Assembly: GCA_013327885.1 (NCBI GenBank)
Contig: JABUMY010000002.1
Span: forward strand, 248,001-312,000
DNA from: Flavisolibacter longurius
GTDB lineage: Bacteria > Bacteroidota > Bacteroidia > Chitinophagales > Chitinophagaceae
Length of the DNA stretch: 64,000 bases
Direction of reading: 5' to 3'
Shown: positions 2,369 to 48,466 of the stretch, one piece after another
Layout of the letters: every line of letters starts with the position of its first letter
Position numbering within the stretch: position 1 is the first letter of the stretch
Program-made: the position numbers and the translations under genes
The notes under the pieces: model-generated
What the model saw: the letters and a program-made list of their open reading frames with translations, nothing else
The model's database searches: none
Told to the model about the DNA's origin: nothing

Positions 2369-2523
2369 AGAGAAGGATATTATTGATATTTGGATATTTT
2401 CCAAAACCATTTATAAAAAGGAGAGGACCGTTTTTAAGCGGTCCTCTCCTTTTACGTTTATACAATGACGTGAGAAAAGGTTGAAAATAATATCTCAATA
2501 TCCCATTATCTTATCTCCTCTCA
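2369..2523. repeat. Inverted pair of degenerate GATATT-type repeats around a terminator
   Basis: Two arms built from variations of GATATT(G/T) flank the shared terminator between convergent genes. The left arm is about 2369-2402 and the right about 2484-2523. Each arm begins at the neighbouring gene's TAG stop and continues with a GAGAGA-like run, so the arms are imperfect inverted copies. The architecture matches other arrays in this window (for example 21179-21280 and 48388-48466), but the repeated word differs. Confidence 0.5.
2416..2453. terminator. Bidirectional terminator with perfect 15-bp stem
   Basis: The stem is 2416-2430 paired with 2439-2453 (AAAAGGAGAGGACCG and its complement) around an 8-nt loop, with A and T runs at the two bases. 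It serves the plus-strand gene ending at 2368 and the minus-strand gene ending at 2524. Confidence 0.9.
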
Positions 2524-3603
2524 CTACAGCTTGCCGTACAGTTCCCGCAGCTTTTCCCTTGTCATGATCTTTTCCCAGTCTTTACCGAGGGCATTTTCCC
2601 AAAGGGGTTTCATGCCCAGTGAAACGTTGATCATGGTATCAAACTGGTCTTCGCTCAGGCCCTGGCAAATGCCCTGCGGAATGTCGATGCCGTTCTTTTC
2701 CACCATGCGCTTAAACTCTTCCACGCCTTCGGGGTAGTATTCCTCGAGGTGCTGCATAACGATGCAGTTGCCTACGCCGTGCTTGGTACCCAGCAGGTAG
2801 CTAAGGCCGTAGCTTACCGCATGCGCCACACCAACCTGGGAGTAGGCAATGCTCATGCCGCCGGCATAAGAGGCCATCATCAGCTTGTCATCACATTCTT
2901 CGTCCCAGCCATCTTTCTCCAGGAAGATATAACGGCAAAGGTCAAGTGCTTTTTCGCCGTAGCTTTTGCTGAACTCATTGAGGTAAGTACCGGTCAGGCT
3001 TTCAATGCAGTGAATATAGCAGTCCATGCCGGTATAAAAGCGCTGGTTCGCCGGCGCATTCGCCGTAAGTTCAGGGTCCAACACGATCTGGTTGAACGGT
3101 GTATAATCGGAGTTCATGCCCAGTTTGCGGGTAGGACCCGTTAGGACAGTGGTACGGCTTACTTCGGCGCCGGTACCGCTCAGCGTAGGAATGCCCGCTT
3201 TGTACACACCCGGTTGTTTCACCAGGTCCCAGCCCTGGTAGTCGGCTGCCGAGCCGGGGTTGTTCATCATCAGCGAAACCGCTTTTGCCAGGTCAAGGGT
3301 TGAGCCACCCCCAATGCCAATCACACCACTCACCATTCCAAACGTATCTTTCAACTCGTCGGCAATGGCATCCACATACGTTGTTTTGGGCTCGTACGTA
3401 ACATCGGCAAAAATGATCTTGTCGTTGCCGCGGAGCGGAACCTTGTTTGCCAACTCTTTTCCTTCAAAAAAATGATCGACCAGGAAAATCATCGGCGCCT
3501 CATCGGTACGTTGCGGCTTCAATATCTCATCCAACTGGCTAAAAGACCCGCGGCCGTACACCACGTAATCTACCATCTTAAAATTGCGGAACGTTGTGCT
3601 CAT
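2524..3603 (-). CDS. kdnB: Iron-containing alcohol dehydrogenase, KdnB-type Kdo 8-oxidase (359 aa)
   Basis: This belongs to the group III iron-dependent alcohol dehydrogenases: N-terminal dinucleotide domain with GIGGGSTLDLAKA, then SGTGAEVSR, and metal ligands in TGMDCYIHCIES, GVAHAVSYGL and GTKHGVGNC. From memory it resembles Shewanella KdnB along its whole length. KdnB oxidises C8 of Kdo in the pathway to 8-amino-8-deoxy-Kdo, an LPS core sugar. The substrate is inferred from that resemblance, and no KdnA-type partner is visible in the window. I start at ATG 3603: an upstream in-frame ATG at 3612 would overlap the -7 promoter box at 3610-3617. The gene stands alone. Confidence 0.8.
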   Translation of the reverse strand: MSTTFRNFKMVDYVVYGRGSFSQLDEILKPQRTDEAPMIFLVDHFFEGKELANKVPLRGNDKIIFADVTYEPKTTYVDAIADELKDTFGMVSGVIGIGGGSTLDLAKAVSLMMNNPGSAADYQGWDLVKQPGVYKAGIPTLSGTGAEVSRTTVLTGPTRKLGMNSDYTPFNQIVLDPELTANAPANQRFYTGMDCYIHCIESLTGTYLNEFSKSYGEKALDLCRYIFLEKDGWDEECDDKLMMASYAGGMSIAYSQVGVAHAVSYGLSYLLGTKHGVGNCIVMQHLEEYYPEGVEEFKRMVEKNGIDIPQGICQGLSEDQFDTMINVSLGMKPLWENALGKDWEKIMTREKLRELYGKL

Positions 3604-3609
3604 AAGGCA

Positions 3610-3617
3610 CAAAGGTA
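3610..3617 (-). promoter_or_regulatory. -7 promoter box TACCTTTG six nt before the kdnB start codon
   Basis: TACCTTTG (minus strand) is a perfect Bacteroidota -7 element and lies only 6 nt upstream of ATG 3603. Transcription should start at or next to the start codon, giving a leaderless or nearly leaderless mRNA. The bases between box and ATG (TGCCTT) are identical to those before pnuC at 46899. Confidence 0.5.
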
Positions 3618-3679
3618 ACCGCAGAACAACGCGATTTGAAAAGAGGAAGCCGGATTTTCAACGCAGTTGGCGCAAGCCC

Positions 3680-4129
3680 TTATTTCTTTGCGGCGGTCCA
3701 GTTCAATTTGTAGGTATCGCAACCGGCACCTACATTGGAGAAACGGATCGTGCCTTCGGCCTTATTACCCTTTATGGTTGCTTTCACCTCAAAGCGAAAG
3801 CCAGATTTGGGTTCGGTGATCACACCATCCACCACACCGTTTTTAATGGACAGGCTTTCTTCCGGACCCAGCGTGGCCTGGTCGAGACGGCCACTGCATC
3901 GCCAGTAGCCTTCAAAGGTGAGATTTTGCAGTTCGTTGCCTTTTACATCAAAGCTGATGGCATCGCCTTTCATGCCGTTGGAGATGGTTCCTCTCCAGGC
4001 AGGACCGGCCGCAGCGGCGGCGGTTTCGTTTTGCAAGGTTGCTGATTGTGCAGTTTTGTTTTGCTCGTTGCCACTGTTGCAGCCGGTGCTGATAGCACCC
4101 AACAGGGCAAGGGTAAGGAGGTATTTCAT
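3680..4129 (-). CDS. Small lipoprotein of unknown function (149 aa)
   Basis: A lipoprotein signal peptide ends in the lipobox STGC (cysteine about residue 17), followed by a disordered linker rich in N, Q, T and A up to about residue 42. The rest is a compact beta-rich domain with two cysteines (YWRCSGR and VGAGCDTY) that could form a disulfide. The predicted location is the periplasmic side of a membrane. I do not recognise a named family. It lies between kdnB and the tandem HTH genes, all on the minus strand with gaps over 50 nt, so co-transcription is uncertain. Confidence 0.75.
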   Translation of the reverse strand: MKYLLTLALLGAISTGCNSGNEQNKTAQSATLQNETAAAAAGPAWRGTISNGMKGDAISFDVKGNELQNLTFEGYWRCSGRLDQATLGPEESLSIKNGVVDGVITEPKSGFRFEVKATIKGNKAEGTIRFSNVGAGCDTYKLNWTAAKK

Positions 4130-4183
4130 AACGGTAAATGTAATACCCGGAAAAGAAAAATGAAAGAGTGCAACAGGAGAAGC

Positions 4184-5197
4184 TTAAGCGCTTGCCGCTG
4201 CACCCAGTGCTTGTTTGCGGCCGGCAATGCGTTTGCGCAGGAGCTTAAAAAAACGGGAACGTTCCCTTTCGCTGACAGAGCTGATGAGCGTGGACTTGCG
4301 CATGAGGTTTTGATAGTAGCTATACATGTTGTCGCAAAAGGCCACATCTCTTGTCACCATAAAGTTGATGGCGCTGTGCGTCAGGAAACAGATTTTTGAT
4401 GTATCCAATACAGCCAGGATAGAATTATCCCCGCTGACCACTTCATTAAAATAAAGCTGGAAACTGCTTAACGGCTTTCGATCAGGGTCGTGGTTATCAA
4501 ACTTGTAGCCCTGCTCGGCCTGTGCTTCCAGGTGAATAAACAATTTATCCAGCGCCTCGTATACCAGCAGCAGGTCTTCTTTGCTTTGAAAGAACCGGCT
4601 GTCGTGGTAATACTCCACTTGCCTCAGGGTGCTTGTCAGGCTTTCAATATTCCAGATCTCGTACGAGTTGATCTGGTTATAGGTATCCAGTGCTTTTCTG
4701 CCGAGGGCAAAAATGGCCTCGGGGTAGTCAGACAGCCGGATTTTGCTTGTGGAAAACTCCGGCGACTGCAGCAAGGTTTTGTGCCAGAAAAAATATTTGA
4801 AGGCGGCCAGTTCGGGATAATGGTAATGATGAAAAAGCGGGATGTCCTTGCAGAGATAATACATCTCCCGTTCTTTAAAAGAGGCCATGTATTTTACCTG
4901 CTGGCCAACAGCCGTAAGGTATTCGTCAAACCGAAACGAAACCGGGTCTACGTACTTGCCCTGGAAAGGAATGGTATCGGCCTGCAGGTTCAGCAGCGTG
5001 TCCAGCGAAAGGCGGTACCGGGTGCAAAGCGCAAGCAGTTCTTCAAAAAGAACCGGCTTTTCCCCTCGAATACGGCGGTAAGCACTGTCGGTGCTGATAC
5101 CCAGCGTTGCGGCAACTTCCTCGGCCAGAGATGTTCCTTCGGGCAGTTTTGTTTTCAGGTATTGAAAAAATCCAACCTGTAATCCTGTTGTTGTCAT
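4184..5197 (-). CDS. HTH-containing protein, second of a tandem paralogous pair (337 aa)
   Basis: Residues about 20-70 look like an HTH of the XRE type (VAATLGISTDSAYRRIRGEK). The rest is a helical domain of about 260 residues with aromatic-rich stretches (FKYFFWHKTLL, YNQINSYEIWNIESL) and a conserved end (LISSVSERERSRFFKLLRKR). The same elements occur in order in the neighbour at 5194-6201, so the two are paralogues from a tandem duplication. The start codon overlaps that gene's stop (ATGA, 5194-5197), implying translational coupling. A role as a DNA-binding regulator is inferred from the N-terminus only, and no ligand-binding family is recognised. Confidence 0.75.
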   Translation of the reverse strand: MTTTGLQVGFFQYLKTKLPEGTSLAEEVAATLGISTDSAYRRIRGEKPVLFEELLALCTRYRLSLDTLLNLQADTIPFQGKYVDPVSFRFDEYLTAVGQQVKYMASFKEREMYYLCKDIPLFHHYHYPELAAFKYFFWHKTLLQSPEFSTSKIRLSDYPEAIFALGRKALDTYNQINSYEIWNIESLTSTLRQVEYYHDSRFFQSKEDLLLVYEALDKLFIHLEAQAEQGYKFDNHDPDRKPLSSFQLYFNEVVSGDNSILAVLDTSKICFLTHSAINFMVTRDVAFCDNMYSYYQNLMRKSTLISSVSERERSRFFKLLRKRIAGRKQALGAAASA

Positions 5198-6201
5198 GAT
5201 GCCATTTTTTCGTTTTGCATTGATTCCACCGGCAGTTTTGCATACAGGATATTAAAAAAGATGGTGCGCTGTTTTTCGCTGACGCTGCTGATAAGGGAGC
5301 TGCGCCGCATGATGGTTTGAATGTTTTGAAACACCTCGTTGCAAAATGCTTCGTCGTTGGTAAGCATATAGTTCAGGGTGTCGTAGTTCAGGAAAAGGGT
5401 TTTGCTGCTGTCGTGCAGGGTCATGATGGTGTTGTTGCCAAGGCCCACCCGGTTATAAAACAGCTTGAAGTTTTCTTTTTTCGTCAGCGGGTTTTCGCCC
5501 GGCAAAAATTTGCGTCCGTACTCGGCCTGTCGCTGCACGTTTTCCAGCATGTGACGCATGCCGGCGTATACGGCTAGCATTTCATCGCGGGTCATCAGAC
5601 CGGTTTCAAAACAATAGCTGATCTGCGCCAGCAGGCCGTTGATGCTTTCCAGGTTCCATATCTCTACAGAAGGAATTTTGTTGTAGAGAGATAGGATCTC
5701 CTGCCCCAACGCTTCTATCTCCGGCGTAAGGCAATGGAGCGAAAACTTTTGCTGCGCAAATGCGGGGTTGCCAAACATCGTCTTCATCCAGAAATAATAG
5801 CGAAAGGAGAACAGCGCCGGCGAGCAAAGCTGGTGAAACAGCGGAAGGTCGCTGGTGACATAATAAATGCTTTTTTCTTCCGCCGCATTGAGGCTCTTTA
5901 TTTGTTGCAGGATGCTGGTGAGGTAGGTCTTAAAGTCGTACACCCGTGATTCCAGCTTGATGTTTTGAAAGACCACCGAATTGTGGTTTAGCTGCAGCAA
6001 CTGGTCAAGCGAAAAATGAAATTGCTGGCACAAGATGGCCGCTTCTTCCAGCACCAGCAGGGTTTCGCCGCGAATGCGTCGGTAAGCACTGTCCTGGCTG
6101 ATACACAACACCTCGGCCACCGTATCTACCAGCGACCGGCCGGGCGGCAGCACTTCTTTGATGCGCTGAAAAAGGTATTCCTGTAATTTCTTTTCGGCCA
6201 T
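5194..6201 (-). CDS. HTH-containing protein, first of a tandem paralogous pair (335 aa)
   Basis: This is the promoter-proximal member of the pair. The HTH-like segment reads VAEVLCISQDSAYRRIRGE and is followed by a helical domain (FRYYFWMKTMF, YNKIPSVEIWNLESI) ending in LISSVSEKQRTIFFNILYAKL. Strong identity to the downstream paralogue is confined to the HTH and the C-terminal block, so the copies have diverged and could act as a heteromer. The region upstream (6202-6437) contains inverted GCAAAAAGG sites and a perfect hairpin, plausible operators. Function is otherwise unknown. Confidence 0.75.
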   Translation of the reverse strand: MAEKKLQEYLFQRIKEVLPPGRSLVDTVAEVLCISQDSAYRRIRGETLLVLEEAAILCQQFHFSLDQLLQLNHNSVVFQNIKLESRVYDFKTYLTSILQQIKSLNAAEEKSIYYVTSDLPLFHQLCSPALFSFRYYFWMKTMFGNPAFAQQKFSLHCLTPEIEALGQEILSLYNKIPSVEIWNLESINGLLAQISYCFETGLMTRDEMLAVYAGMRHMLENVQRQAEYGRKFLPGENPLTKKENFKLFYNRVGLGNNTIMTLHDSSKTLFLNYDTLNYMLTNDEAFCNEVFQNIQTIMRRSSLISSVSEKQRTIFFNILYAKLPVESMQNEKMAS

Positions 6202-13998: not shown

Positions 13999-14021
13999 AT
14001 TTCGCAAGGCGCGAAGGAGAA

Positions 14022-14048
14022 AAGGAGAAGAAAACTTCTCCTTTTTTA
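14022..14048 (+). terminator. Terminator of lysS
   Basis: AAGGAGAAG (14022-14030) pairs with CTTCTCCTT around AAAA, followed by a T run. The core hairpin AGGAGAAG-AAAA-CTTCTCCT recurs exactly at 14636-14655. Confidence 0.85.
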
Positions 14049-17971: not shown

Positions 17972-18456
17972 CGTTAGCTTGTTGTCCACCTTTTCTCTTG
18001 GAAAGAAAAGGTGGAGCCAAAAGTTCAAGGAAAAAGCAAATGCTCCGCTGCTTTTTCCAAGCCAGCGCACAACGGGCCTTTCATTACAGGATGCACTATT
18101 CACGTTATAAGCAGTTTTTATCTTCAACTTTATCTTCACTGCACATTGCCCGATGCATTTATATATTTCGGCCGATCAAGCAAGAAACTGCTGGCGCTGT
18201 ATTGCGCTACCCTATCATCACAACAAATAGAAGCGTTAGCTAATGCGCAATAAGGCGCTGGACCGACGGGTGAAGGGATAAAATGATGTTGGATTCTTTT
18301 CTATTTGAGAATTGATTATTGAGAATTGAAAATTCTTGTACCAAAATAAAAAGCCTCCACCAAAAGAATAGTGAAGGCTAAAAATGTATTGTGCAAAAGC
18401 AGGGGTCTGTGCGTTGGCTGTTCCTCCCCCACCGGGGGAGGTTAGGTGGAGGACCC
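17972..18456. repeat. Long interspersed repeat, copy 1 (about 485 bp)
   Basis: This stretch matches 37707-38182 block by block in the same orientation. The best-conserved part starts with CCACCTTTTCT-N7-AGAAAAGGTGG (17986-18014) and GGAAAAAGCA-N10-TGCTTTTTCC; about 90 nt here differ at only two positions between copies. Then come GGCGCTGTATTGCGC pairing with GCGCAATAAGGCGC, an AGCCTCCAC / GTGAAGGCT hairpin (18352-18379) and CCTCCCCC-N3-GGGGGAGG. It ends exactly at the stop of the minus-strand lptC-like gene. Open frames inside it give no convincing protein. It fills most of the 17846-18456 gap. Confidence 0.75.
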
Positions 18457-19068
18457 CTACTGCGCCGCCATGCTATCCGGCACCATAATAATACCTGTTG
18501 GCTGAAAAATGGTGTAGTTAGAAAGATCCTGGTCGGCCTCGAAGCCTTTGCCGCCGTAAATGATCTTCGATGCCGATTTGAAACGAACCACCTTGTCCGT
18601 ATAAAATTTTTTATTGTTCTGGTCCCACCAAAGGTCCGGCGTACGCAGGGTATCACCCTTTATATTGAAAGCAACCACGCTGTCGCGTAGATACACCTTG
18701 CTTTGTGTTTCCAGGTATTTACCGTAAAGCGCATCCACCTGGCTTTCTACCTTTCCGGAACTGTCGTAAAAGTTTACGTGCAGCGACCGGCTGAATTCAA
18801 GATAGGTGCTGTCCAAGGTGTAGCGTTTCATGTAAGGCGAGGTGAGTTTTGCCCGGAGCTGCCCGTTGGCACTGAGGTAGCTCGTAATGGAAAAAGCCTC
18901 TTCGATGGCCGGCTTGCGGTCGTTGGTACGGTTGACTACTTCAGGGTCGTTTTCGCAACCCATAAAAATCAACGTACACAAAACGAAAAACGTCAAACGG
19001 TAAACGTAAGAAGAGGAAAAAGCGTTCCGGGTGTCCTCCTGTTTGACGTTTGTCGTTTGACGTTTCAC
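18457..19068 (-). CDS. lptC: LPS export protein LptC-like lipoprotein (about 203 aa, start unusual)
   Basis: The mature part begins CENDPE after a hydrophobic stretch (LTFFVLCTLIFMGC) and has the beta-jellyroll pattern of LptC: ITSYLSANGQLRAKLTSPYM, then LDSTYLEFSRSLHVNFYD, then ALYGKYLE. LptC is part of the LptB2FGC transporter that carries lipopolysaccharide from the inner membrane. No ATG lies before the signal sequence. In-frame options are GTG 19068, a TTG at the hydrophobic core, or TTG 19122. The region is occupied by an inverted short-repeat array, so the N-terminus seems remodelled. It follows the barrel gene and coaX, an order I know from other Bacteroidota. Confidence 0.75.
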   Translation of the reverse strand: MKRQTTNVKQEDTRNAFSSSYVYRLTFFVLCTLIFMGCENDPEVVNRTNDRKPAIEEAFSITSYLSANGQLRAKLTSPYMKRYTLDSTYLEFSRSLHVNFYDSSGKVESQVDALYGKYLETQSKVYLRDSVVAFNIKGDTLRTPDLWWDQNNKKFYTDKVVRFKSASKIIYGGKGFEADQDLSNYTIFQPTGIIMVPDSMAAQ

Positions 19069-19069
19069 G
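18980..19069. repeat. Inverted array of AAACGTC-type short repeats inside the lptC N-terminus
   Basis: The left arm (about 18980-19010) is made of AAACG, CAAACGG and TAAACG words. The right arm (19041-19069) is their inverse (GTTTGACGTTTGTCG and so on). The loop is about 30 nt. The array lies just past the stop of the barrel gene (19095) and codes for the first residues of the lptC frame. Confidence 0.6.
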
Positions 19070-19094: not shown

Positions 19095-20444
19095 TTAATC
19101 GTAGCGGCGCTTGCCAAACCAAAGATCGGTGAAGTTGAAGCCCAGCGAAATGCGGAACATGTCTTCCTTGATGGCATTGTCGTCGTTGCCGCGGCGCATG
19201 TATTCCGCACCAATGTTGATGATGGTTTGCTGCGGCGTCAGGCGGCTGTAGTTACGCAAGGGCAAGCCCAGTCCCAATGAAACACCGTAAACCGGCAGGT
19301 CGTCACCCACTTTGATATAATCTTTCCCGGTAAAAAAGCCAAACCGGTAGCTAACCATTCTTCCTGCCTGCATGGCCGAAAAAGAAGGTGTGATCTGTCC
19401 GCCCACACGAATCTCCCAGTTGTTTTGCACCAGGTCTTTTGTACCAAAAAAGCGGAAGTCGTCCCACTTGCCGGTAACATAATCCACACCCAGGCTCCAG
19501 CCACGGGCCCGTTCGCTGGGCGCATGCTCAAACATTAACCCTACGGTATAGTTGGCCGGGTAAATCACGTCGCCGGCAACATCACGCTGTTGCGATACGC
19601 TGTCAACCTGCAGTTCCTGCCCGTTCACGTCGCGGGTGTAAGTATACCGGCTGATATCCTGCGAACCGCCAAGGGTTTGCTTCCAGTTACCGGAAGCACC
19701 CAGGCGCAGGGCCGACCGGCCAATATCAATGCGCCACTGCGTTCCTACGGTGAAAAACAGGTTGCCGAAGTTTGAATTGGTGGTGTGGTTCGATGCGGCG
19801 TATTCAATGGAGTCGTTTACAAATGCACGACGGGTGGTCAGCTCTTTCTTTCCAAAAAGGTAACCCACATTGGCGCCAATGCTAAAGTTGTTGGTGCCAA
19901 AACCGGTGCCAATGGAAGGCAAAAAGCTACCGCCGTTACCGGTGTATTGCGTAAACACGCTGTCGATGTTGCCGCCGCCGGTATTGGTCAGCCGTTCGCG
20001 GCGATAAATGTTGTACGCTACACGGCTTACCGGGCGGATGCCGAATGCCAATCCCCAGTTAGGCCGGATGGGAACGCCTACGTAGATGTGTGAAAAAAGA
20101 AAGTCGTTGGCACGAAAGCTTTGCGTGGTGTTGGGCTCTGCCAGTTTGCGGCTGTCGAAGTTGATACCTGCATCAAGAATCACCCTTCCCTGTGAAACTT
20201 TTCGTGAACGCTGTTCAATATAGGATTGGAAACCGGCGTAAGATGCCGGGTTATTGTAGTTGACTGAGAATGGGTCGCTATACGCAGCCGAAATGCCACC
20301 CATACCCCGGCTGATCACATTGGTGCGAGGATACTGGTTACCCAATCCATAACGGGAATAAGGCGAGTTGTCCTGCGCATTGAGTGAAGTAAAAAGAACA
20401 GATGAGAAAAAAGCAGCCGCTATAGAGAATTTATGTTTAAGCAT
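19095..20444 (-). CDS. Outer-membrane beta-barrel protein (449 aa)
   Basis: ATG 20444 gives a signal peptide (MLKHKFSIAAAFFSSVLF, ending near LNAQ). The mature protein starts DNSPYSRYGLGNQ, with GMGGISAAYSDPFSVNYNNPASY, a start typical of Bacteroidota barrels related to the FadL/OmpP1 family, and continues with regularly spaced amphipathic strands to LGFNFTDLWFGKRRYD. It probably sits in the outer membrane; transport function is not established. It overlaps the end of coaX by 8 nt and precedes lptC, so the three are co-transcribed. The context suggests a link to outer-membrane assembly, which is inference. Confidence 0.8.
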   Translation of the reverse strand: MLKHKFSIAAAFFSSVLFTSLNAQDNSPYSRYGLGNQYPRTNVISRGMGGISAAYSDPFSVNYNNPASYAGFQSYIEQRSRKVSQGRVILDAGINFDSRKLAEPNTTQSFRANDFLFSHIYVGVPIRPNWGLAFGIRPVSRVAYNIYRRERLTNTGGGNIDSVFTQYTGNGGSFLPSIGTGFGTNNFSIGANVGYLFGKKELTTRRAFVNDSIEYAASNHTTNSNFGNLFFTVGTQWRIDIGRSALRLGASGNWKQTLGGSQDISRYTYTRDVNGQELQVDSVSQQRDVAGDVIYPANYTVGLMFEHAPSERARGWSLGVDYVTGKWDDFRFFGTKDLVQNNWEIRVGGQITPSFSAMQAGRMVSYRFGFFTGKDYIKVGDDLPVYGVSLGLGLPLRNYSRLTPQQTIINIGAEYMRRGNDDNAIKEDMFRISLGFNFTDLWFGKRRYD

Positions 20445-21159: not shown

Positions 21160-21178
21160 AGCTTGATCAAAAAGTCCA

Positions 21179-21280
21179 CAAGTTTACGGGTTCACCCGTT
21201 CACAAGCCGAAAATTGTTTGCTGTCTTGCAACACGTGAACACGTGAACTCGTGAACTCGTGAACCCGTGAACTTGTAAAC
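21179..21280. repeat. Inverted array of CGTGAACT-type short repeats
   Basis: The right arm (about 21229-21280) contains five or six near-copies of CGTGAAC(T/C/A) in tandem and ends one base before the TAG of the LON-domain gene. The left arm (21179-21206) is an inverted copy of its end (AAGTTTACGGGTTCAC against AAGTTCACGGGTTCAC). The pair can fold into a long hairpin with a loop of about 22 nt. Confidence 0.7.
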
Positions 21281-21922
21281 CTATATGTCGAAGTTGAAGG
21301 CAGAGAGATTTTTAAAATGCCCGTTGAGCTTTACTTTTTCTTTGAGGTTTTCCATTTCAGCTACCATCGGGATCACTTTCTGCAGGTGCCGCTTGAGGTA
21401 TTCCTGCCGCTGCCGCTCGTGCAGCAGGTTCAGGAATTCGTACTCCTGCTGCAGCGAAAAACCAACATGGTGCGCCAGGTCGTAGGTAGTAAGTTCGTCG
21501 TCGCTTTTTTTAAAATCCTTTTCTACGTTTAGCAGCTTGTACAATTCTTTTATGCTGTTGAGAAGGCGACGCATCATATCGGCGCTGCCCATTTCGTGGT
21601 TTACGGGATAATTGACAATAGCGCCGCTGTATAATTTATCCGGAATTTCTTTGATCACTTCCAGCACACGAAACACCTGCCCGCCTTCGGTCTTGATATC
21701 CATCTCACCGTTTTCGTGAACGGTGGTGATCTCTTTTACACGGACAACCGTGCCGTAATCCTGCACTTTGTTGTCGATCACCGTTGGAATGCCAAAGGGT
21801 TTTTGAGCGGTAAAGCATTCATTGATCAGTTGCTTGTACCGGGGTTCAAAAATGTGCAGGTTCAGGCTTTCACCCGGGTACACCACAATGCCAAGCGGAA
21901 ATATCGGAACAAAATTGGTCAT
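21281..21922 (-). CDS. LON peptidase substrate-binding domain protein (213 aa)
   Basis: ATG 21922 begins MTNFVPIFPLGIVVYPGE, the canonical start of the Lon N-terminal (PUA-like, LAN) domain, with HIFEPRYKQLI and FGI following. No AAA or Lon protease domain follows, so this is the stand-alone form, whose function is unknown (possibly recognition of unfolded or marked proteins). The C-terminal 90 residues are helical and charged. An in-frame extension upstream of 21922 is encoded by a short-repeat array and is unlikely to be translated. Confidence 0.85.
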   Translation of the reverse strand: MTNFVPIFPLGIVVYPGESLNLHIFEPRYKQLINECFTAQKPFGIPTVIDNKVQDYGTVVRVKEITTVHENGEMDIKTEGGQVFRVLEVIKEIPDKLYSGAIVNYPVNHEMGSADMMRRLLNSIKELYKLLNVEKDFKKSDDELTTYDLAHHVGFSLQQEYEFLNLLHERQRQEYLKRHLQKVIPMVAEMENLKEKVKLNGHFKNLSAFNFDI

Positions 21923-21950: not shown

Positions 21951-22048
21951 GACGTGAGACGTGAAACGACAAACATGAAACCGTAGTGAACTATTATGGA
22001 AGAATCTCTTCGGTCTCACGTCTCACATTTGACTTTTCACGTTTCTCC
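21951..22048. repeat. Inverted array of ACGTGAGA-type short repeats
   Basis: The left arm (21951-21983) strings together GACGTGAGACGTGAAACG-like words; the right arm (22011-22048) carries their inverse (CGGTCTCACGTCTCACATTT and on). The loop between them holds the stop of the glycosyltransferase gene (21994-21996), so the right arm codes for that protein's last residues (EKREKSNVRRE). Confidence 0.65.
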
Positions 22049-22791
22049 AATTCCCGCAGCCTGGCGTATTTCAGAAAAGTATAAAACGCGGTCATGCGGG
22101 CCGAAAGCAGGCCTTCCCAGCCATCTAAAAAGCCCAGGCCAAAAAGGTAGTGCCTGGCAAAAGCAAATTGCGGCGAGAGCCAGCGCTTCACCCAGGTCGA
22201 TCGTTTGCCCTGCCGGAAATATTTTTCGGCATTGAGCAGGGCGTACTGCACCATTTTCTGGCTGTATTCAACCGTGTCTTTCATGGTGCGGTGCAGCACA
22301 TGTCCTTTCAATTGTTGAATCGTTACACTGCTGGGAATAATAAGCCTTTCATGGATGATCGCTTCATCCCAATTGACCACCGTGCGGTTAAACAGGCGAA
22401 CATGCTGGTCACCGCCCCACTCACCCCAGCGCAGGTGTTTTTCACCCAACAAATTTTTAAAAGCGATGCGATACGCAACCTGGTTGTTTGCCGGCTGCAA
22501 GGTTTCCAGGGTTTGCTGCAATTCTGTATCGATGGCTTCATCGGCATCAAGACAAAGCACCCAGTCGTTTTGCGCCAGCGAAACAGCGTGGCGTTTGGTT
22601 TTGCCAAAGCCAAGCCAGGGGCCTTGCACCACCCGAACCCGAAAAGCCTGCAAAGATTCCAACGTACCGTCGGTGCTGCCGCTGTCGTACACCACCACGT
22701 CACCGCTTACACCAACAAGACTTTGCAGCACCCTTTCAATGTTGCCCTTTTCGTTTTTACAAATAATAACAATGGAAAATTTGTTGTTCAT
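21994..22791 (-). CDS. Family 2 glycosyltransferase, WaaE/KdtX-like (265 aa)
   Basis: I start at ATG 22791 (MNNKFSIVIICKNEKGNI); the longer frame passes through a repeat array. The GT-A fold is clear: VVVYDSGSTDGT for nucleotide-sugar binding and VLCLDADEAI with the metal-binding DxD. The C-terminal hydrophobic stretch (FARHYLFGLGFLDGWEG) matches the WaaE/KdtX group that adds a sugar to LPS inner core. Location: cytoplasmic face of the inner membrane. The last residues come from repeat sequence, so the tail is probably not functional. It lies in the minus-strand block between the O-antigen ligase and the LON-domain gene. Confidence 0.85.
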   Translation of the reverse strand: MNNKFSIVIICKNEKGNIERVLQSLVGVSGDVVVYDSGSTDGTLESLQAFRVRVVQGPWLGFGKTKRHAVSLAQNDWVLCLDADEAIDTELQQTLETLQPANNQVAYRIAFKNLLGEKHLRWGEWGGDQHVRLFNRTVVNWDEAIIHERLIIPSSVTIQQLKGHVLHRTMKDTVEYSQKMVQYALLNAEKYFRQGKRSTWVKRWLSPQFAFARHYLFGLGFLDGWEGLLSARMTAFYTFLKYARLRELEKREKSNVRRETEEILP

Positions 22792-22801
22792 GCCCGCAAT
22801 T

Positions 22802-22929
22802 GAGAACGTGAGACGTAAGACGGGAAACGTCAAACGTGAAAAACAGATGCTGCAAACTTCAGCAATTGTAACGATAGGTAGTGTTTTAAGGAACCTCTCT
22901 CGCATCTGCCGTCTCACGTTTCTCGTCCC
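22802..22929. repeat. Inverted array of ACGTGAGAC-type short repeats
   Basis: The left arm 22802-22850 (AACGTGAGACGTAAGACGGG and on, ending CAGATGC) and right arm 22902-22929 (GCATCTGCCGTCTCACGTTT and on) are imperfect inverses with about 51 nt between them. The right arm is the coding end of the O-antigen ligase gene (stop at 22886). The word is close to that of the array at 21951. Confidence 0.65.
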
Positions 22930-24160
22930 TCCCCCACTTCCACCACCAAAAGGTTAGAAAGGCGTACAAAAAAATTCCGTACTGCACTTCCAGCCCCACA
23001 TCGTACGCAAAGCTAAAGGCAGCGGTTGCATGTAGCGCCATCCAAAAAATTTTTGGCAGCCACACCGCTATAAAAAAAGGAGCTGCCATAACAACAGTAA
23101 ACAACACCACACCAACCCAGCCGGCAAATGCACCGTAAAGCAGCCACTCGGAGCTGGGGTAAAATTTATCTGTAGGTAATACGTCCGGTACCTGTTGCGC
23201 ATACCATCTGTCGGCTTCGTGCATGACATCGCCGGCGCCAACGCCCAATGGATTTCGCTGCAGCACCTGCCAACCGGCTTTCAGCGACATTACCCTTGCG
23301 CCATCGTTAGCACCGGGCAGGTATTCGGCCTTCCTGACAAAAGAAAAATCATACACCAGGTAACGAACACGGTTTTGAAACGTGGGTACGGTGTAATAAG
23401 CAACCAGTGGAAGTGCGATGAAAGCGAGCAAAAGCAAAGCGGCCACCTTGCCATTTTTTTTCTGCCACAAGAACCAGCCTGCATAGAACACCATAAAAAT
23501 GTACAGCGATAGCATGCCCGTTCGTGCAGAAAGAACATGGAGGTAAAGACTAAAAAACACAGCGCCGCTCCAAAGCAGTATTCGGATTGTTTTGGCCTTT
23601 ACAAAATGGTTCAGCAGGATACAGGTCATCACCGCAATGCTGACCAGCCAGCTGAAACGCACATGGTCGTTCTCCAGTGGCGTGAGCAAGGTTTTGGCGC
23701 GGAGATAACCTTCATGCACTGCCGCCATGTTTTGAAAATAATGCAGCAGGCTCCAGCAGCAGCCGGCAAAAACAACAAGAAGGAACGTAACTGCCACAGC
23801 CTGCCACTGCTTTTGCGTAAACTGCCAGCTTCCGGCAAAGGCCAGCGGGAAAAAAAGCAAGGGCAGCTTTAGTCGCACCACATCGCTCCATTTAGCAAGA
23901 TCGCTGCTCCACAGGCCCGATACAAACGGTATGAAAAAAAGAAGAGTGAAGAGGAGCAGGAAACGGTTATGCAGAAACGTTTTCCATTGCTGCGCAAAAT
24001 CTTTCCGAACGATGGCCAGTACCAGGAACAACATGGTGGCCGTGGACAAAGCGCCTCTTCCCAGCAACAGCGAAACCGGCAACAGCAAAAACGAAATAAA
24101 AAGGAGTGTCGGATGCAAACTGCGCCATGGCCCTTTCCCGCTATTTTTGTACGCAGTCAT
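22886..24160 (-). CDS. O-antigen ligase family membrane protein (424 aa)
   Basis: A polytopic inner-membrane protein with about ten hydrophobic segments and the Wzy/WaaL arrangement: a large periplasmic loop after residue 250 containing LKAGWQVLQRNPLGVGAGD, then FYPSSEWLLYGAFAGW. Such proteins join O-antigen to lipid A core or polymerise surface glycans. ATG 24160 is chosen; only weak start codons lie further out. The last residues (GRDEKRETADAREVP) are encoded by a repeat arm. It is divergent from meaB with 21 nt between the starts. Confidence 0.85.
   Translation of the reverse strand: MTAYKNSGKGPWRSLHPTLLFISFLLLPVSLLLGRGALSTATMLFLVLAIVRKDFAQQWKTFLHNRFLLLFTLLFFIPFVSGLWSSDLAKWSDVVRLKLPLLFFPLAFAGSWQFTQKQWQAVAVTFLLVVFAGCCWSLLHYFQNMAAVHEGYLRAKTLLTPLENDHVRFSWLVSIAVMTCILLNHFVKAKTIRILLWSGAVFFSLYLHVLSARTGMLSLYIFMVFYAGWFLWQKKNGKVAALLLLAFIALPLVAYYTVPTFQNRVRYLVYDFSFVRKAEYLPGANDGARVMSLKAGWQVLQRNPLGVGAGDVMHEADRWYAQQVPDVLPTDKFYPSSEWLLYGAFAGWVGVVLFTVVMAAPFFIAVWLPKIFWMALHATAAFSFAYDVGLEVQYGIFLYAFLTFWWWKWGRDEKRETADAREVP
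24142..24149 (+). promoter_or_regulatory. -7 promoter box TATTTTTG of meaB
   Basis: A perfect TAnnTTTG box 32 nt before ATG 24182. It lies within the first codons of the divergent O-antigen ligase gene, so the two genes' control regions overlap. Confidence 0.4.
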
Positions 24161-24181
24161 CACCAATCACAATATTAGCGC

Positions 24182-40346: not shown

Positions 40347-40360
40347 TTAGCGATGCTGGT

Positions 40361-40620
40361 GGTTGGTGAGTGGTGAATGGTCAGTAGTGAGTAAGGGTCG
40401 CTTAAGATTGTGTTTTTATTTTCTAGTAAAGAATCTTTTTAGTTCAACCGCTGATTTTCATGGCCGCTTTCCAGGCCTTGATTGCACCACCTTTTTCTTT
40501 GCAGCCATTGCCAGTTACCGCGGAGAAATTATAGTAACGATTCTCTGCATTTTCCGTGCAGAAAGAATTGAACTGGAGTGCTCTCAAAACTCACCACTGA
40601 CCATTCACCACTCACCAACC
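40361..40620. repeat. 260-bp segment bounded by 32-bp inverted repeats
   Basis: The left arm 40361-40392 and right arm 40589-40620 are inverse copies with one mismatch over 32 bp. Each is made of degenerate GGTGAGT / GGTGAATGGTCAGT words. The 196 nt between them carry no gene. The right arm ends 2 nt before the stop of the lipoprotein gene at 40623. No target-site duplication is seen, so a mobile origin is not shown. It is the cleanest example of the inverted arrays in this window. Confidence 0.75.
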
Positions 40621-40622
40621 TC

Positions 40623-41030
40623 CTATTTCTCCAGCCGGATAAAATTGCTGTCCTTTCGTTCGCCGTTAACGGTAAAGCTGTTCACCGATTTGTATTCATC
40701 ACCGGTGCAATTGCATTTTTCTTTTGTGAAAACAAAGTTCTCTATCCTGTATTCTTTGTTCAATGCAGGCAGGCGAACCGTCCAATTGTAATCAACAGAA
40801 ATGGTTTGCGCCACAGCCGAACGGCTGGTATCGCCAACAGGCACAATTGACAGTACAGAAAAACTATCCAGGGCCTGCGTGCTTCCAGGCGGGTAACGAA
40901 CAAACACTACCGTGGTGGTTTCCGCAGCTTTAAACTTTTCAAAACTGATAGTGACCTCACCGTCAACACAGATTATTTTACAGCAGCCTGCAGCTAAAAA
41001 AATAACGGCAAACGCAAAAATGAGCTTCAT
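40623..41030 (-). CDS. Lipoprotein of unknown function (135 aa)
   Basis: A lipoprotein signal (MKLIFAFAVIFLAAGC) is followed by a single beta-rich domain. Further cysteines in CCKIICVD and KEKCNCTGDE may pair. I do not recognise the family. Its ATG overlaps the stop of the glycosyltransferase gene (41027-41030), so they are co-translated, but no functional tie is evident. A repeat arm touches the stop codon. Confidence 0.72.
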   Translation of the reverse strand: MKLIFAFAVIFLAAGCCKIICVDGEVTISFEKFKAAETTTVVFVRYPPGSTQALDSFSVLSIVPVGDTSRSAVAQTISVDYNWTVRLPALNKEYRIENFVFTKEKCNCTGDEYKSVNSFTVNGERKDSNFIRLEK

Positions 41031-42189: not shown

Positions 42190-42219
42190 GGAGCAAATTA
42201 GTTATTCTAAAAATCAGGT

Positions 42220-42339: not shown

Positions 42340-42356
42340 GATAAAAAGGACGAGTC

Positions 42357-43849: not shown

Positions 43850-43866
43850 GATTTGGATTTGCGCGG

Positions 43867-43874: not shown

Positions 43875-43940
43875 GGGCATAAATGGCAACAGGAGGCTCT
43901 ACGATTCTGCTTTAATATGTGATGGCCAACGGTGGGGAAA

Positions 43941-44056
43941 GTAGGCAGTTGGCAGTACGCAGTAAGCAGTTGAGCAGGTTTTCTGTTGTATCAAAAAGCC
44001 ATTCTTCCCTAATTCAGAAATAGGAACAGAAAACAGTAAAACGGCAAACGGTAAAC
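43941..44056. repeat. Short-repeat array with GGCAGT-type and ACGGTAAAC-type arms
   Basis: The left arm 43941-43988 repeats (G)GCAGT(A/T) words; the right arm 44022-44056 is made of AACAGT, AAACGGC and AAACGGT words. The arms pair through GTTTTCTGTT and AACAGAAAAC. The right arm ends 5 nt before the stop of the GT39 gene. The 43850-44060 gap holds nothing else I can identify. Confidence 0.6.
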
Positions 44057-44060
44057 CTCC

Positions 44061-45722: not shown

Positions 45723-45724
45723 GG

Positions 45725-46255
45725 TTATTGTTTCGTGTGAAAGAAATGATCAATGGCCTGCACGGCCGATTGCAGTCGCTGCCGTTCAGTGCCGCGGATC
45801 TCAATCCAAGGGATCCCGCTATGAATTAAAATGTCTTTGTACATCCCAAAAAGGCGCTGCCGGGTTTTAAGTTCGGGATATTCCCGCAAGGCATCCTGTG
45901 CCCAGGGAAGGTCGGTGGAACAAAGCAGGTACAGATCGCAATGCGCAGTGGCCAGTGCTTTTAAGATCCAGGTGGGACAATGGGCAAACGCCACTTCGTA
46001 CCAAACTTTCATTACATAGAGATCGGTATCAACAATGAACATGTTATTTCTTACCGCTTTTGCTACTTCTGCTTCCAGCAACAATTGTCCATTGGCAATG
46101 GTGGTGAGATCATTATAGGTATAATCCGTTCCGTGCTGTAGCAAGTATTCCCTTGCATACTCGGGACACCACACCGTGTTGTAATGTTCGGCCAACTCTT
46201 CGCAGAGGGTGCTTTTGCCGGTAGACTCGGGGCCAATGACAACAATTTTTTTCAT
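45725..46255 (-). CDS. NadR-type nicotinamide riboside kinase/ATPase (176 aa)
   Basis: A P-loop protein (VVIGPESTGKSTLCEELA) with WCPEYAREYL and IVDTDLYVMKVW, the pattern of the C-terminal kinase domain of NadR. The NMN adenylyltransferase domain of full NadR is missing. Its ATG overlaps the stop of pnuC (ATGA, 46252-46255). The pairing supports phosphorylation of imported nicotinamide riboside to NMN, trapping it in the cell. Assignment is by family and context. Confidence 0.85.
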   Translation of the reverse strand: MKKIVVIGPESTGKSTLCEELAEHYNTVWCPEYAREYLLQHGTDYTYNDLTTIANGQLLLEAEVAKAVRNNMFIVDTDLYVMKVWYEVAFAHCPTWILKALATAHCDLYLLCSTDLPWAQDALREYPELKTRQRLFGMYKDILIHSGIPWIEIRGTERQRLQSAVQAIDHFFHTKQ

Positions 46256-46899
46256 TTTTCAACAGCAAAAGTAGCAGCATTTGCCGTAGCCCTTGCCCTG
46301 CGCTTCCATTCCTGCAATCCAAATACGGCGAGCACCAGCAACACGCTGTAATACACACTTGTAAATACCAAGCCTTTTACATAATACAAAGGGATGGATG
46401 CCATGTTGGTCAATATCCACCACCACCAGCTTTCCACTTTTTTGCGGGCCATCAGCCACATACCAGTAAATGCTGTGGCAGAAGCAAAAGCATCGCCCCA
46501 TGGAATTACGCCTTCAAAAAAGTTTTGCTTCAGGTAGGTAAGCGCCAGGAAAATAGCCACATAAAAACCAAGAAAAAATCCAATCTCCTGTACCCATTCC
46601 TTTTTAGTAGAAAAGCTTATGTGCAACACCGGTTTTGATTCCCGGTCTTTCCGCGTCCAAAGCCACCAGCCGTAGAAACTCATCACCGTATAATAAAAAT
46701 TGACGCTGGCTTCGCCGATGAGATGATATTTAAAACTGAGATAGATGTAGATAATGGTATTGACCAGTCCTGTGGGATAAACCCAAACGTTTTCGATCCG
46801 CGAAAACACAACGCTTATAATGCCGGTAAAAACGGCAATGTATTCAAGGGGTGTAGTCGCCTGTAGGTTTTGTAAAAACTGGTCAACAAATTCCTGCAT
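46252..46899 (-). CDS. pnuC: Nicotinamide riboside transporter PnuC (215 aa)
   Basis: Seven or so membrane helices with PnuC motifs: ISVVFSRIENVWVYPTGLVN, YTVMSFYGWWLW and ESWWWWILTNMASIPLYY (aromatic nucleoside-binding residues). PnuC takes up nicotinamide riboside by facilitated diffusion driven by phosphorylation inside. ATG 46899 is chosen because a -7 box (46906-46913) lies directly before it and excludes the longer reading frame. It heads the pnuC, kinase, GT39 operon. The related thiamine transporter PnuT usually sits by a thiamine kinase, which is not the case here. Confidence 0.9.
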   Translation of the reverse strand: MQEFVDQFLQNLQATTPLEYIAVFTGIISVVFSRIENVWVYPTGLVNTIIYIYLSFKYHLIGEASVNFYYTVMSFYGWWLWTRKDRESKPVLHISFSTKKEWVQEIGFFLGFYVAIFLALTYLKQNFFEGVIPWGDAFASATAFTGMWLMARKKVESWWWWILTNMASIPLYYVKGLVFTSVYYSVLLVLAVFGLQEWKRRARATANAATFAVEK

Positions 46900-46905
46900 A
46901 AGGCA

Positions 46906-46913
46906 CAAACCTA
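46906..46913 (-). promoter_or_regulatory. -7 promoter box TAGGTTTG six nt before the pnuC start
   Basis: A perfect TAnnTTTG on the minus strand, 6 nt before ATG 46899. The spacer TGCCTT is the same as at kdnB. It implies a leaderless or nearly leaderless transcript. Confidence 0.5.
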
Positions 46914-47025
46914 CTGAAGAAAAAGCTGCGGGCTGCCAGCTTTTAGTTGATTGCAATTCACCGTTAACTATTGCAGGAAACAACAACGACTTTGCTGTTT
47001 TTTGTTTCCTAACGGCTAGAGCCTA

Positions 47026-47604
47026 TCACTCTGCTTTGTACCGGCGCAGCGGCTGCAAAAACCTGGCGCCTTCTTCAGTTTGAAATACAACCGGCAGTTC
47101 TTTTCCGCCGATCCGCGTTCGCTCTGTTACCTCAAAATGCAGGTGCGGAAACGCACTAAAGCCGGTGCTGCCGCTGTAGCCGATCAGTTGTCCTTTTGTA
47201 ACGGTATCGCCTACCCTAACAACCGATCCGTTGTAGCGCAGGTGCCAGTAGTGCGCATAGGTGTCGTCGCCATGGCTGATGGTGATGCCATTGCCTTTGC
47301 CCCTGAATTTTCGCGTAATGCCGCCGTTGGTAAAAAAGCTTCGCTCAAAAACAACCACCCCTCCCCTTGCCGCATGGATAGGTGTGCCCGGCTTCATTTT
47401 AAAGTCAACGGCAAAATCGCCGAAGTGCGAAAAAAACGAATGAGAACCCTGGGCTACCCGGTAGGCTTTCCCTTTTTCAAACGGAAGTGCATACACGTAG
47501 GTCGTATCGGGCAGCGTCTTACCGGCACGGTACATAACCTGGTTGTTCTGCAACAGGGAGCAGGAGGCAAAACAAAGGACCAGCGAAAAAAGCAGGAATT
47601 TCAT
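47026..47604 (-). CDS. M23 family peptidase, lipoprotein (192 aa)
   Basis: A lipoprotein signal (lipobox FASC) is followed by a compact LytM/M23 domain. Zinc ligands are in SHFGDFAVDF (HxxxD) and HLHFEV (HxH), with the intervening GNGITISHGDDTYAHYWHL. Such enzymes cut peptidoglycan cross-links or peptide stems; all ligands seem intact, so it should be active rather than an EnvC-type activator. There are no coiled-coil or LysM segments. Monocistronic as far as spacing shows. Confidence 0.88.
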   Translation of the reverse strand: MKFLLFSLVLCFASCSLLQNNQVMYRAGKTLPDTTYVYALPFEKGKAYRVAQGSHSFFSHFGDFAVDFKMKPGTPIHAARGGVVVFERSFFTNGGITRKFRGKGNGITISHGDDTYAHYWHLRYNGSVVRVGDTVTKGQLIGYSGSTGFSAFPHLHFEVTERTRIGGKELPVVFQTEEGARFLQPLRRYKAE

Positions 47605-47639
47605 TACAAAGAATCGGCATCTTTTCTTTCCGAAACAAC

Positions 47640-47663
47640 AAAAGCACCCGGGGTGGTGCTTTT
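47640..47663 (-). terminator. Terminator of the NFU gene
   Basis: AAAAGCACC (47640-47648) pairs with GGTGCTTTT (47655-47663) around a 6-nt loop, 27 nt past the stop at 47691. Confidence 0.8.
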
Positions 47664-47690
47664 GTCAACTATCAAAAGGCGAAAGAGAAA

Positions 47691-48287
47691 TTATTCTGCT
47701 TCGGCCACCACTTCTTTTACTTCGGGAATCATGCGCTTCATCATGCCTTCAATACCCGCCTTCAGCGTGATCATGGAAGAAGGACAACCCGAGCAGCTTC
47801 CCTGCAACATCAGGTTTACAACGCCATTGTCGTAGCTTTTAAACTGGATGGCACCACCGTCCATTTCTACGGCCGGCTTTACATAGTTCTCCAGCAATTC
47901 TTTAATACGAACCACAATGTCGTCGTCATCAGCAGTCACTTCATTTGTGCTTTCCTGCTTTACGGTAGCCAGTTCTTCTTCATTGATCACCGCCTTGTTT
48001 TCCTCCAGGTATTCTTTCAAAAACTGGCGAATGGTTGGGATCACGTCGTTCCAATCGGTTTCAGGAGTTTTTGTCAGCGTTACAAAGTTAGAGGCGACAA
48101 ACACAGCCCGGATAAAAGGAAAACCAAACAATTCGGTTGCCAGCGGTGAAGGCTTGGCACTTTCTACATCCTGGAAATCAGCGCTTTTGCCGGGAAACAG
48201 CAGCTTGTTGGCCACAAATTTCATGGTTTCCGGGTTGGGCGTCATTTCGGTATATATGCTGATGATGGGATTACCAGTCTTGATCAT
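47691..48287 (-). CDS. NFU-type iron-sulfur cluster carrier (198 aa)
   Basis: Two domains: an Nfu N-terminal domain (YTEMTPNPETMKFVANKLL) and a NifU C-terminal domain with the cluster-binding CSGCPSS in LQGSCSGCPSSMITLKAGIE. This is the eukaryote-like NFU1 layout found in Bacteroidota, which passes 4Fe-4S clusters to target enzymes. ATG 48287 is chosen because the Nfu_N domain begins there. A TAAATTTG box about 19 nt upstream fits as -7 element. A strong terminator follows. Confidence 0.92.
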   Translation of the reverse strand: MIKTGNPIISIYTEMTPNPETMKFVANKLLFPGKSADFQDVESAKPSPLATELFGFPFIRAVFVASNFVTLTKTPETDWNDVIPTIRQFLKEYLEENKAVINEEELATVKQESTNEVTADDDDIVVRIKELLENYVKPAVEMDGGAIQFKSYDNGVVNLMLQGSCSGCPSSMITLKAGIEGMMKRMIPEVKEVVAEAE

Positions 48288-48387
48288 AACGTTTGTATTT
48301 GTTGCAAATTTATTGAATACCCACCCATGTTTGCTCCCAAAAGCGAACAAAGGCGTTAAAATTAGTTTACAAAAGAAACGCCAGTTT

Positions 48388-48466
48388 CAATGGGCAATTG
48401 ACAATTGGCAATGGGCAGTAGGTTATTGCGCCAGTTGCCCATTGCTTATTGCCCGTTGTTTATTGC
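48388..48466. repeat. Inverted array of CAATGGGCAATT-type short repeats
   Basis: The left arm 48388-48422 chains CAATGGG, CAATTGA, CAATTGG and CAATGGG heptamers. The right arm 48431-48466 is their inverse, with only 8 nt between, so a long hairpin is likely. The right arm ends 1 nt before the stop of the barrel gene at 48468. Confidence 0.7.

What the first reader, a model, noticed from the sequence alone, without database searches (positions are those of the whole stretch)
2369..48466. Family of inverted short-repeat arrays at gene 3' ends, with shared architecture but mostly different repeat words
Eight places (2369-2523, 18980-19069, 21179-21280, 21951-22048, 22802-22929, 40361-40620, 43941-44056, 48388-48466) show one plan: two arms of degenerate 6-8-nt words in tandem, mostly inverse to each other, with one arm touching or just inside the 3' end of a gene. 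The word is locus-specific (GATATT, AAACGTC, CGTGAACT, ACGTGAGA twice, GGTGAGT, GGCAGT, CAATGGG), so the loci are not copies of one element. This argues for a mechanism that builds such arrays in place (slippage plus template switching at a hairpin) or keeps them as 3'-end RNA structures. The nearest known parallel is the heptanucleotide STRR sequences of cyanobacteria.
Basis: partly seen in the sequence, partly recalled or inferred. Interest (0 to 1): 0.8.

Follow-up and report, generated by a model that had tools for sequence, protein, structure and literature searches.

The report
Strand-polar heptamer hairpins at stop codons
A Flavisolibacter-like bacterium carries many small DNA hairpins made of slightly varied 7- or 8-letter words that sit right against the stop codons of genes; similar repeats are known from Xanthomonas and cyanobacteria, but here many different words share one layout and one strand direction.

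Summary
Arrays are genome-wide (129 in an 800-kb sample). Words are not locus-specific: about ten word families recur, and one 25-mer of mixed units recurs exactly at 16 places. Loops between arms are mostly unique, so these are not copies of one ordinary element. Arrays abut stop codons (19 of 62 within 12 nt in roomy spacers, 2.9 expected; starts 4 of 44, 2.5 expected). Neighbouring arrays read G-rich then C-rich in 88 pairs, the reverse in 5, of 131. Stop position is kept while stop identity shifts from TAA to TAG/TGA. Between Flavisolibacter species, sites persist, vanish, or swap words on both arms. Closest known: Xanthomonas GGGAATC repeats (PMC4692102), which already show stop proximity, the strand rule and inverted pairs. 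New here: many words in one genome, almost no quadruplex motif, word swaps. Best reading: tracts copied between sites and re-templated between arms, tolerated or kept at 3' ends. Function unproven.

The parts
2375..2399 (+). 5' arm, GATATTNN words (family J8), 6 nt after the stop of the + gene 1085-2368 (Por secretion tail)
2415..2454 (.). strong terminator-like hairpin between the two arms
2489..2511 (-). 3' arm, GATATTNN words, 12-13 nt before the stop of the - gene 2524-3612 (Fe-ADH)
18980..19006 (+). 5' arm, ACGNNAR words (A7)
19041..19069 (-). 3' arm, A7 words, 25 nt from the stop of the - gene at 19095; same family at this site in the three relatives compared
21167..21203 (+). 5' arm, GTTCACNN words (G8)
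21230..21285 (-). 3' arm, G8 words, overlapping the stop of the - gene 21281 (LON-domain protein); same family in the three relatives compared
21951..21981 (+). 5' arm, A7 words, 12 nt beyond the stop of the - gene 21994; other families at this site in G006 and G003, A7 outside with G8-like words inside in G009
22013..22045 (-). 3' arm, A7 words, inside the C-terminal codons of the - gene 21994-22917 (glycosyltransferase)
22806..22841 (+). 5' arm, A7 words
22910..22929 (-). 3' arm, A7 words, inside the C-terminal codons of the - gene 22886-24166 (Wzy-like)
40357..40393 (+). 5' arm, GGTSAGT words (B7), of an insertion of about 265 nt absent from both relatives with this spacer aligned (G006, G009)
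40583..40617 (-). 3' arm, B7 words, 5 nt from the stop of the - gene 40623-41030; 94% complementary to the 5' arm over 35 nt
43940..43970 (+). array of GCAGTNN words (F7)
44025..44056 (.). array of AAACGGY words, 4 nt from the stop of the - gene 44061; the script calls it A7 '+', its complement reads GTTTGCC (D7-like), so family and polarity are ambiguous
48388..48422 (+). 5' arm, CAATNNG words (C7)
48435..48466 (-). 3' arm, C7 words, 1 nt from the stop of the - gene 48468; no array at this site in G006

Best explanation
These are members of a genome-wide class of strand-polar, degenerate heptamer/octamer arrays (STRR/LSSR type), often in pairs that form an imperfect inverted repeat. Shown: shared vocabulary, placement against stop codons, polarity, presence, absence and word swap at orthologous sites. 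Inferred mechanism: array tracts of about 30 nt spread by copying from arrays already in the genome (homology-assisted template switching or gene conversion). The two arms of a site re-template each other, so words can change on both sides. Copies survive where they do least harm or some good: between stop codon and terminator or next promoter. They encroach up to the stop codon and often supply its last bases. Any cell function is at most REP-like (a structured or protein-bound 3' end) and is not shown.
For: Same 25-mer of mixed units at 16 places (zero-mismatch rows); unit order recurs beyond unit frequencies (6 seen, 0.33 expected). Loops lack shared sequence: 38 of 158 array spacers against 43 of 381 others have any loop homologue. 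Two-sided complementary changes 10 against 1.3 expected over 14 sites in G006. B7 words in this genome and G006, A7 words in G009, on both arms at the same place in a spacer of 153/155/158 nt (site 339). Occupancy persists: 20 of 32 array sites are also occupied in G009, against 3 of 69 array-free sites. Protein ends unchanged (19 of 24 and 22 of 25) while TAA falls from 57% to 25% next to arrays, and stop identity changes more often (identical 10 of 29 against 119 of 191 in G009). Density convergent, codirectional, divergent 2.26, 0.89, 0.47 per kb.
Against: Attraction to stop codons persists in long spacers with room elsewhere (19 of 62 against 2.9), which mere tolerance does not explain. 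Polarity (88 to 5) is not explained by copying or re-templating alone. 19 of 45 arm pairs mix families, so re-templating between arms is far from universal. Arms are not better conserved than the rest of the spacer in G006 (0.69 against 0.685). Compensation was not seen at the 4 sites testable in G009, and in G003 only 3 of 6 two-sided changes were complementary; in G006 35 one-sided changes stand beside the 10. No copying event was observed directly.
Confidence: 0.45

Rival explanations
1. Selected RNA 3'-end structures: the stem starts at the stop codon and protects or ends the transcript, or helps ribosome release; the word is free as long as arms pair.
For: Stop-specific placement even in long spacers, without the same excess at starts; compensatory changes; same sites kept in relatives with other words.
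Against: 19 of 45 pairs have arms of different families, which mostly pair poorly in the folds. Where both arms and a forward terminator-like hairpin were found, the hairpin lies between the arms in 8 of 9 convergent and 1 of 3 codirectional spacers, so a terminated mRNA would often hold only one arm. Terminators are not replaced. Many sites have a single detected array.
Confidence: 0.3
2. MITE-like mobile elements whose terminal inverted repeats are heptamer arrays, moved by a transposase such as the Y1/RAYT family.
For: Site 36 (40357-40622) is an insertion of about 265 nt absent from G006 and G009. Eight Y1_Tnp matches in the genome.
Against: Loops mostly unique. G005 (100% complete) and G008 (84% complete) have no Y1_Tnp match but 27 and 162 hits of the B7 pattern (reversed-pattern control 0 and 40); G014 has 5 Y1_Tnp matches and no B7 hit. 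Other word families were not counted there. Word swaps at fixed position. Target duplications could not be judged at this divergence.
Confidence: 0.1
3. Independent neutral slippage at each locus.
For: Tandem 7-8-nt units and a few long near-perfect arrays.
Against: Shared unit order between loci; mismatches concentrate at a few of the 7-8 unit positions (mean chi-square 10.7 against 5.0); stop placement and polarity.
Confidence: 0.07
4. G-quadruplex elements, as proposed for the Xanthomonas heptamers.
For: Same architecture as the Xanthomonas repeats (PMC4692102); G-rich strand in the same sense.
Against: 1 of 218 arrays has a four-tract G3 motif, 41 of 218 a G2 motif.
Confidence: 0.03

Closest known systems
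GGGAATC / (GGGANTN)n heptamer repeats of Xanthomonas and GGGGA(C/T)T of Nostoc (PMC4692102; sections 10 and 15 and search passages read)
   Same: Degenerate heptamers with fixed and variable positions, mostly four units in Xanthomonas, mostly intergenic, near stops on the coding strand (some overlapping the stop) and near starts on the non-coding strand, convergent inverted pairs (70 cases in Xcc, 75 in Xac; only a few in Nostoc), more between convergent than divergent genes, generally not linked to mobile elements.
   Different: That study follows one G-rich word type per genome and ties it to quadruplexes; here about ten word families in one genome, 7- and 8-nt units, almost no G3 quadruplex motif, mixed-family pairs, word swap at orthologous sites.
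Heptamer stems in the Nostoc tRNA-Leu intron P6b, Class I TDNGATT and Class II NNTGAGT (PMC4476775; passages read)
   Same: Stem built of degenerate 7-nt words; NNTGAGT is close to the B7 word; repeated replacement of one word class by the other in related lineages.
   Different: One site inside an intron; here many intergenic sites.
TAACTGA repeats of Beggiatoaceae, cyanobacteria and five Bacteroidetes (PMC4679880; abstract, section 12 and passages read)
   Same: Intergenic heptamer tandems, orientation tied to gene edges, also in Bacteroidetes.
   Different: Mostly direct repeats just upstream of starts; one inverted case reported in the BOGUAY genome.
Cyanobacterial STRR
   Same: Degenerate tandem heptanucleotides; inverted pairs also seen here on Nostocales plasmids.
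   Different: On those plasmids polarity is 3 to 3 of 8 pairs and stop proximity weak (5 of 14 within 15 nt, null 18%).
REP/BIME palindromes (recalled)
   Same: Dispersed, intergenic, 3'-biased, inverted arms.
   Different: No single conserved palindrome; Y1_Tnp presence does not follow the number of B7 hits.

Membership tests
STRR / heptamer LSSR class | tandem degenerate 7-nt units at many intergenic sites | tested here: met
   103 period-7 segments against 0 in the Markov control; 117 of 129 arrays intergenic
Xanthomonas-type stop-proximal heptamers | close to or overlapping stop codons, G-rich strand = coding strand there | tested here: met
   of 109 stop-abutting arrays 85 have positive and 17 negative G skew in the gene's sense
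Xanthomonas-type stop-proximal heptamers | convergent inverted pairs | tested here: met
   45 +- against 1 -+ spacers
Xanthomonas-type stop-proximal heptamers | G-quadruplex-forming G tracts | tested here: not met
   1 of 218 arrays with a G3 motif
MITE | conserved interior shared between copies | tested here: not met
   one composite A7/G8 form may be an exception
MITE | target-site duplication | not testable with these tools
   nearest relative searched has about 88% protein identity; no clean empty site
REP/RAYT | dependence on a Y1 (RAYT) transposase | tested here: not met
   presence/absence over 18 genomes and one word family only
Intrinsic terminator | GC stem followed by a T run, replacing other terminators | tested here: not met
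   terminator-like hairpins in 19 of 38 convergent spacers with arrays and 20 of 52 without; 10 of 88 and 41 of 256 in codirectional
Rfam families | match at the gathering score | tested here: not met
   0 matches in the window

The most novel reading that the evidence does not exclude
The arrays are laid onto gene ends by a strand-polar, template-directed extension process that starts within or at the stop codon (for example RNA-templated 3'-end addition, telomere-like in geometry: G-rich strand 5'->3' away from each gene edge, constant 5-6-nt core plus about 2 loose bases per unit), and the genome holds several templates, hence several words. No enzyme or template was sought or found.
Probability: 0.07. 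Interest if true: 0.85.

Novelty: new variant of a known kind. Interest (0 to 1): 0.5.

Why it matters
It extends a little-studied repeat class, so far studied one word at a time in the papers I saw, to a genus where many words share one architecture. That separates the architecture (stop-codon placement, polarity, inverted pairing) from any one sequence and from quadruplex formation, and makes its cause testable by comparing species and by RNA 3'-end mapping.

Tried and rejected
Rejected: locus-specific words. Rejected as sole cause: Y1/RAYT transposase. Rejected: arrays as terminators. Rejected: stop placement as only an effect of short spacers. Rejected: new stop codons by truncation of the genes (protein ends unchanged in 19 of 24 and 22 of 25). 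Tried without support: arms better conserved than the rest of the spacer. Tried: cyanobacterial plasmids as a second test of the rules; inverted pairs present, polarity absent, stop proximity weak. An early look at 150 kb (3 of 3 intergenic sites next to a stop, as written in my notes) did not hold on 450 kb. Limits: genes were called by my own script, not by a standard program. Word families and their '+' sense were defined by eye, then checked by a family-free G-skew test. The family-guided scan has noise (240 hits against 28 in shuffled spacers at score 22), so 'single' and 'mixed' sites include some errors. In one search the control (the pattern read backwards) also matches, 82 times here and 0 to 49 times elsewhere; read backwards the pattern still looks like a B7 array, so I take this as no clean control. 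Unit-position entropies are biased by the family models; the model-free test is. The syntenic comparison leaves out spacers over 700 nt in this genome and gene pairs without adjacent orthologues (206 spacers compared).
Full report
What is there. The window (G000:C22:248001-312000) comes from a genome whose closest relatives, among the 28 searched with one protein, are G006 and G009 (91% and 86% identity). By equal contig lengths these are Flavisolibacter longurius BT320 and F. nicotianae X7X. All eight reported places hold degenerate tandem words. At score 13 or more the window has 10 period-7/8 arrays against a mean of 0.05 in 20 Markov simulations. In 800 kb of two other contigs there are 103 period-7, 28 period-8 and 15 period-6 segments, against 0, 1 and 1 in one Markov sequence of that length. 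129 arrays remain after merging, 117 of them intergenic.

Words are shared. The list shows recurring words: ACGNNAR, GGTSAGT/AGCGAGT, CAATNNG, GTTTGNN, GCAGTNN, AGCTNNT (7 nt) and GTTCACNN, GTTRATNN, GATAWTNN (8 nt). A search of the whole genome with 40350-40630 gave 100 matches at E up to 1; apart from the query itself they fall on the arms. A 25-base pattern of B7 units with up to 2 mismatches has 177 matches here, 87 in G006, 162 in G008, 122 in G015 and 0 to 36 in the other 14 of the 18 genomes of the genus examined; the backwards pattern, itself B7-like, gives 82, 21, 40, 49 and 0 to 18. 16 of the exact matches in this genome are the same mixed-unit 25-mer. The order of unit variants recurs more than unit frequencies predict (6 seen, 0.33 expected). 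Within units, mismatches concentrate at a few positions (193 arrays, mean chi-square 10.7 against 5.0; 51% with p<0.05), consistent with a core of 5-6 fixed bases and about two loose ones (model-biased).

Place and polarity. Array density is 2.26, 0.89 and 0.47 per kb in convergent, codirectional and divergent spacers. Within 10 nt of a stop lie 74% of 42 convergent and 47% of 62 codirectional arrays; random placement in the same spacers gives 22% and 17%. Counting over all spacers with arrays, 91 of 170 stop-bearing edges have the array within 12 nt (50.4 expected) and 27 of 118 start-bearing edges (27.4 expected). With at least 150 nt to spare it is 19 of 62 (2.9) and 4 of 44 (2.5). In 21 convergent spacers with both arms, the left arm is within 5 nt of its stop in 18 and the right arm within 16 nt in all 21; in 26 codirectional ones the first arm is within 9 nt of the stop in 23. 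Within a spacer '+' words lie left and '-' words right in 45 two-array cases, reversed in 1; 26 of these pairs share the family and 19 do not. Of 67 arrays within 15 nt of a stop, 52 have the '+' sense in the gene's direction, 7 the '-' sense, 8 are unclassified. Without families, neighbouring arrays read G-rich then C-rich in 88 pairs and the reverse in 5 of 131 pairs, over this genome, three congeners and other, mostly Chitinophagaceae, loci; the other 38 are weak or same-sided. On Nostocales plasmids it is 3 to 3 of 8.

Stop codons. Genes with an abutting array (109) use TAA 25%, TAG 38%, TGA 38%; the other 936 use 57%, 20%, 23%. Yet the protein end matches that of orthologues without an abutting array in 19 of 24 (G006) and 22 of 25 (G009), no worse than the background of 187 of 242 and 120 of 194. 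The stop codon itself is identical in 10 of 29 such pairs in G009 against 119 of 191, and in 13 of 25 against 172 of 241 in G006. The array edge thus tends to fall in or at the stop codon and to supply its last bases. Several orthologues counted as array-free hold weak arrays below my threshold (rows).

Change over time. Of 206 syntenic spacers, this genome has arrays at 47 of those comparable with G006: 31 share a family, 3 differ, 1 is unclear, 12 are empty there; 4 are filled only in G006 and 126 are empty in both. Against G009: 12 share, 8 differ, 12 empty, 3 only there, 66 neither. Against G003: 5 share, 2 differ, 5 empty, 1 only there, 10 neither. At site 339 this genome and G006 have B7 words on both arms, G009 A7 words on both arms at nearly the same distances. 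At 40357-40622 an insertion of about 265 nt sits next to the stop, absent from G006 and G009. In arms that pair, 10 two-sided complementary changes were seen in G006 against 1.3 expected, beside 3 two-sided non-complementary and 35 one-sided ones over 14 sites; 4 sites in G009 gave no two-sided change, 3 sites in G003 gave 3 complementary and 3 not. Arms are not better conserved than the rest of the spacer (0.69 against 0.685 in G006, p=0.64; 0.72 against 0.65 in G009, p=0.09).

What it is not. Terminator-like hairpins occur in 19 of 38 convergent spacers with arrays and 20 of 52 without, 10 of 88 and 41 of 256 in codirectional ones; with both arms and a forward hairpin present, it lies between the arms in 8 of 9 convergent and 1 of 3 codirectional cases. 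Loops rarely share sequence (38 of 158 against 43 of 381). Y1_Tnp genes do not follow the number of B7 hits. No Rfam match in the window. One of 218 arrays has a G3 quadruplex motif, 41 a G2 motif.

Known work. Of eight literature searches I opened three papers. PMC4692102 (sections 10 and 15 and passages read) reports Xanthomonas (GGGANTN)n arrays, mostly four units, near stops on the coding strand and near starts on the non-coding strand, with a strong bias to lie at or over the stop codon, and 70 and 75 inverted pairs; it links them to G-quadruplexes. PMC4476775 (passages) reports stems of 7-nt words, TDNGATT or NNTGAGT, replaced repeatedly in Nostoc. PMC4679880 (abstract, section 12 and passages) reports TAACTGA repeats, with five Bacteroidetes. 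In these searches I found no description of multi-word arrays in Chitinophagaceae; most subscription journals are not held.

Spread. 19 of the 40 relatives' loci that I scanned (of 46 fetched) hold at least one array, with other words in other genera, such as GTGAAAG in Flavihumibacter and AAAAGTC in a Sediminibacterium; 21 hold none in up to about 20 kb, and one of the 40 shuffled controls holds one.

Reading. The architecture is real, shared with the Xanthomonas repeats as published, and independent of the word. Copying between sites and re-templating between arms explain the shared blocks, coordinated changes and word swaps. Neither explains the stop-codon attraction nor the polarity, which may need selection at the 3' end or a polar way of making the arrays. 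I give 0.45 to the first, 0.3 to a selected RNA role, and keep the polar-extension idea as the bold case.

Noticed in passing
L010-L049 spacers, e.g. C11:101632 and C11:209718 (L015, L020): A separate dispersed repeat family (a linked cluster of 54 spacers in 800 kb; listed pairs 73-94% identical over about 60-200 nt) lies in spacers with and without arrays; perhaps MITE-like.
   Followed up: no
L030:5733-5759, L039:5471-5520, L017:4322-4375: Period-6 arrays of GGTTAA-type words beside the period-7/8 class.
   Followed up: no
L011:1255-1349; L084:13539-13661: Long near-perfect arrays, GTTTGTA over about 95 nt here and GGAGTTT over 123 nt in F. nicotianae: possible recent expansions.
   Followed up: no
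C11 near 33131, 73684, 148574, 378614 (L011, L013, L017, L028): Four sites share an A7 ... GTTCAAC + G8 layout, two of them with a closing A7 arm; perhaps one true composite element family.
   Followed up: partly
window 21994-22060 and 22886-22960: The last codons of a glycosyltransferase and a Wzy-like protein are encoded by array sequence (ends EKREKSNVRRETEEILP and RDEKRETADAREVP).
   Followed up: partly
G009, orthologue of the spacer at window 22792-22885: F. nicotianae has about 1.2 kb extra in this spacer, by eye an open frame like a glycosyltransferase (not searched), followed by AGCGAGT-type arms.
   Followed up: no
window 14006-14029 and 18305-18334: Two weaker arrays not in the finding, one of them 7 nt after a stop codon.
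   Followed up: no
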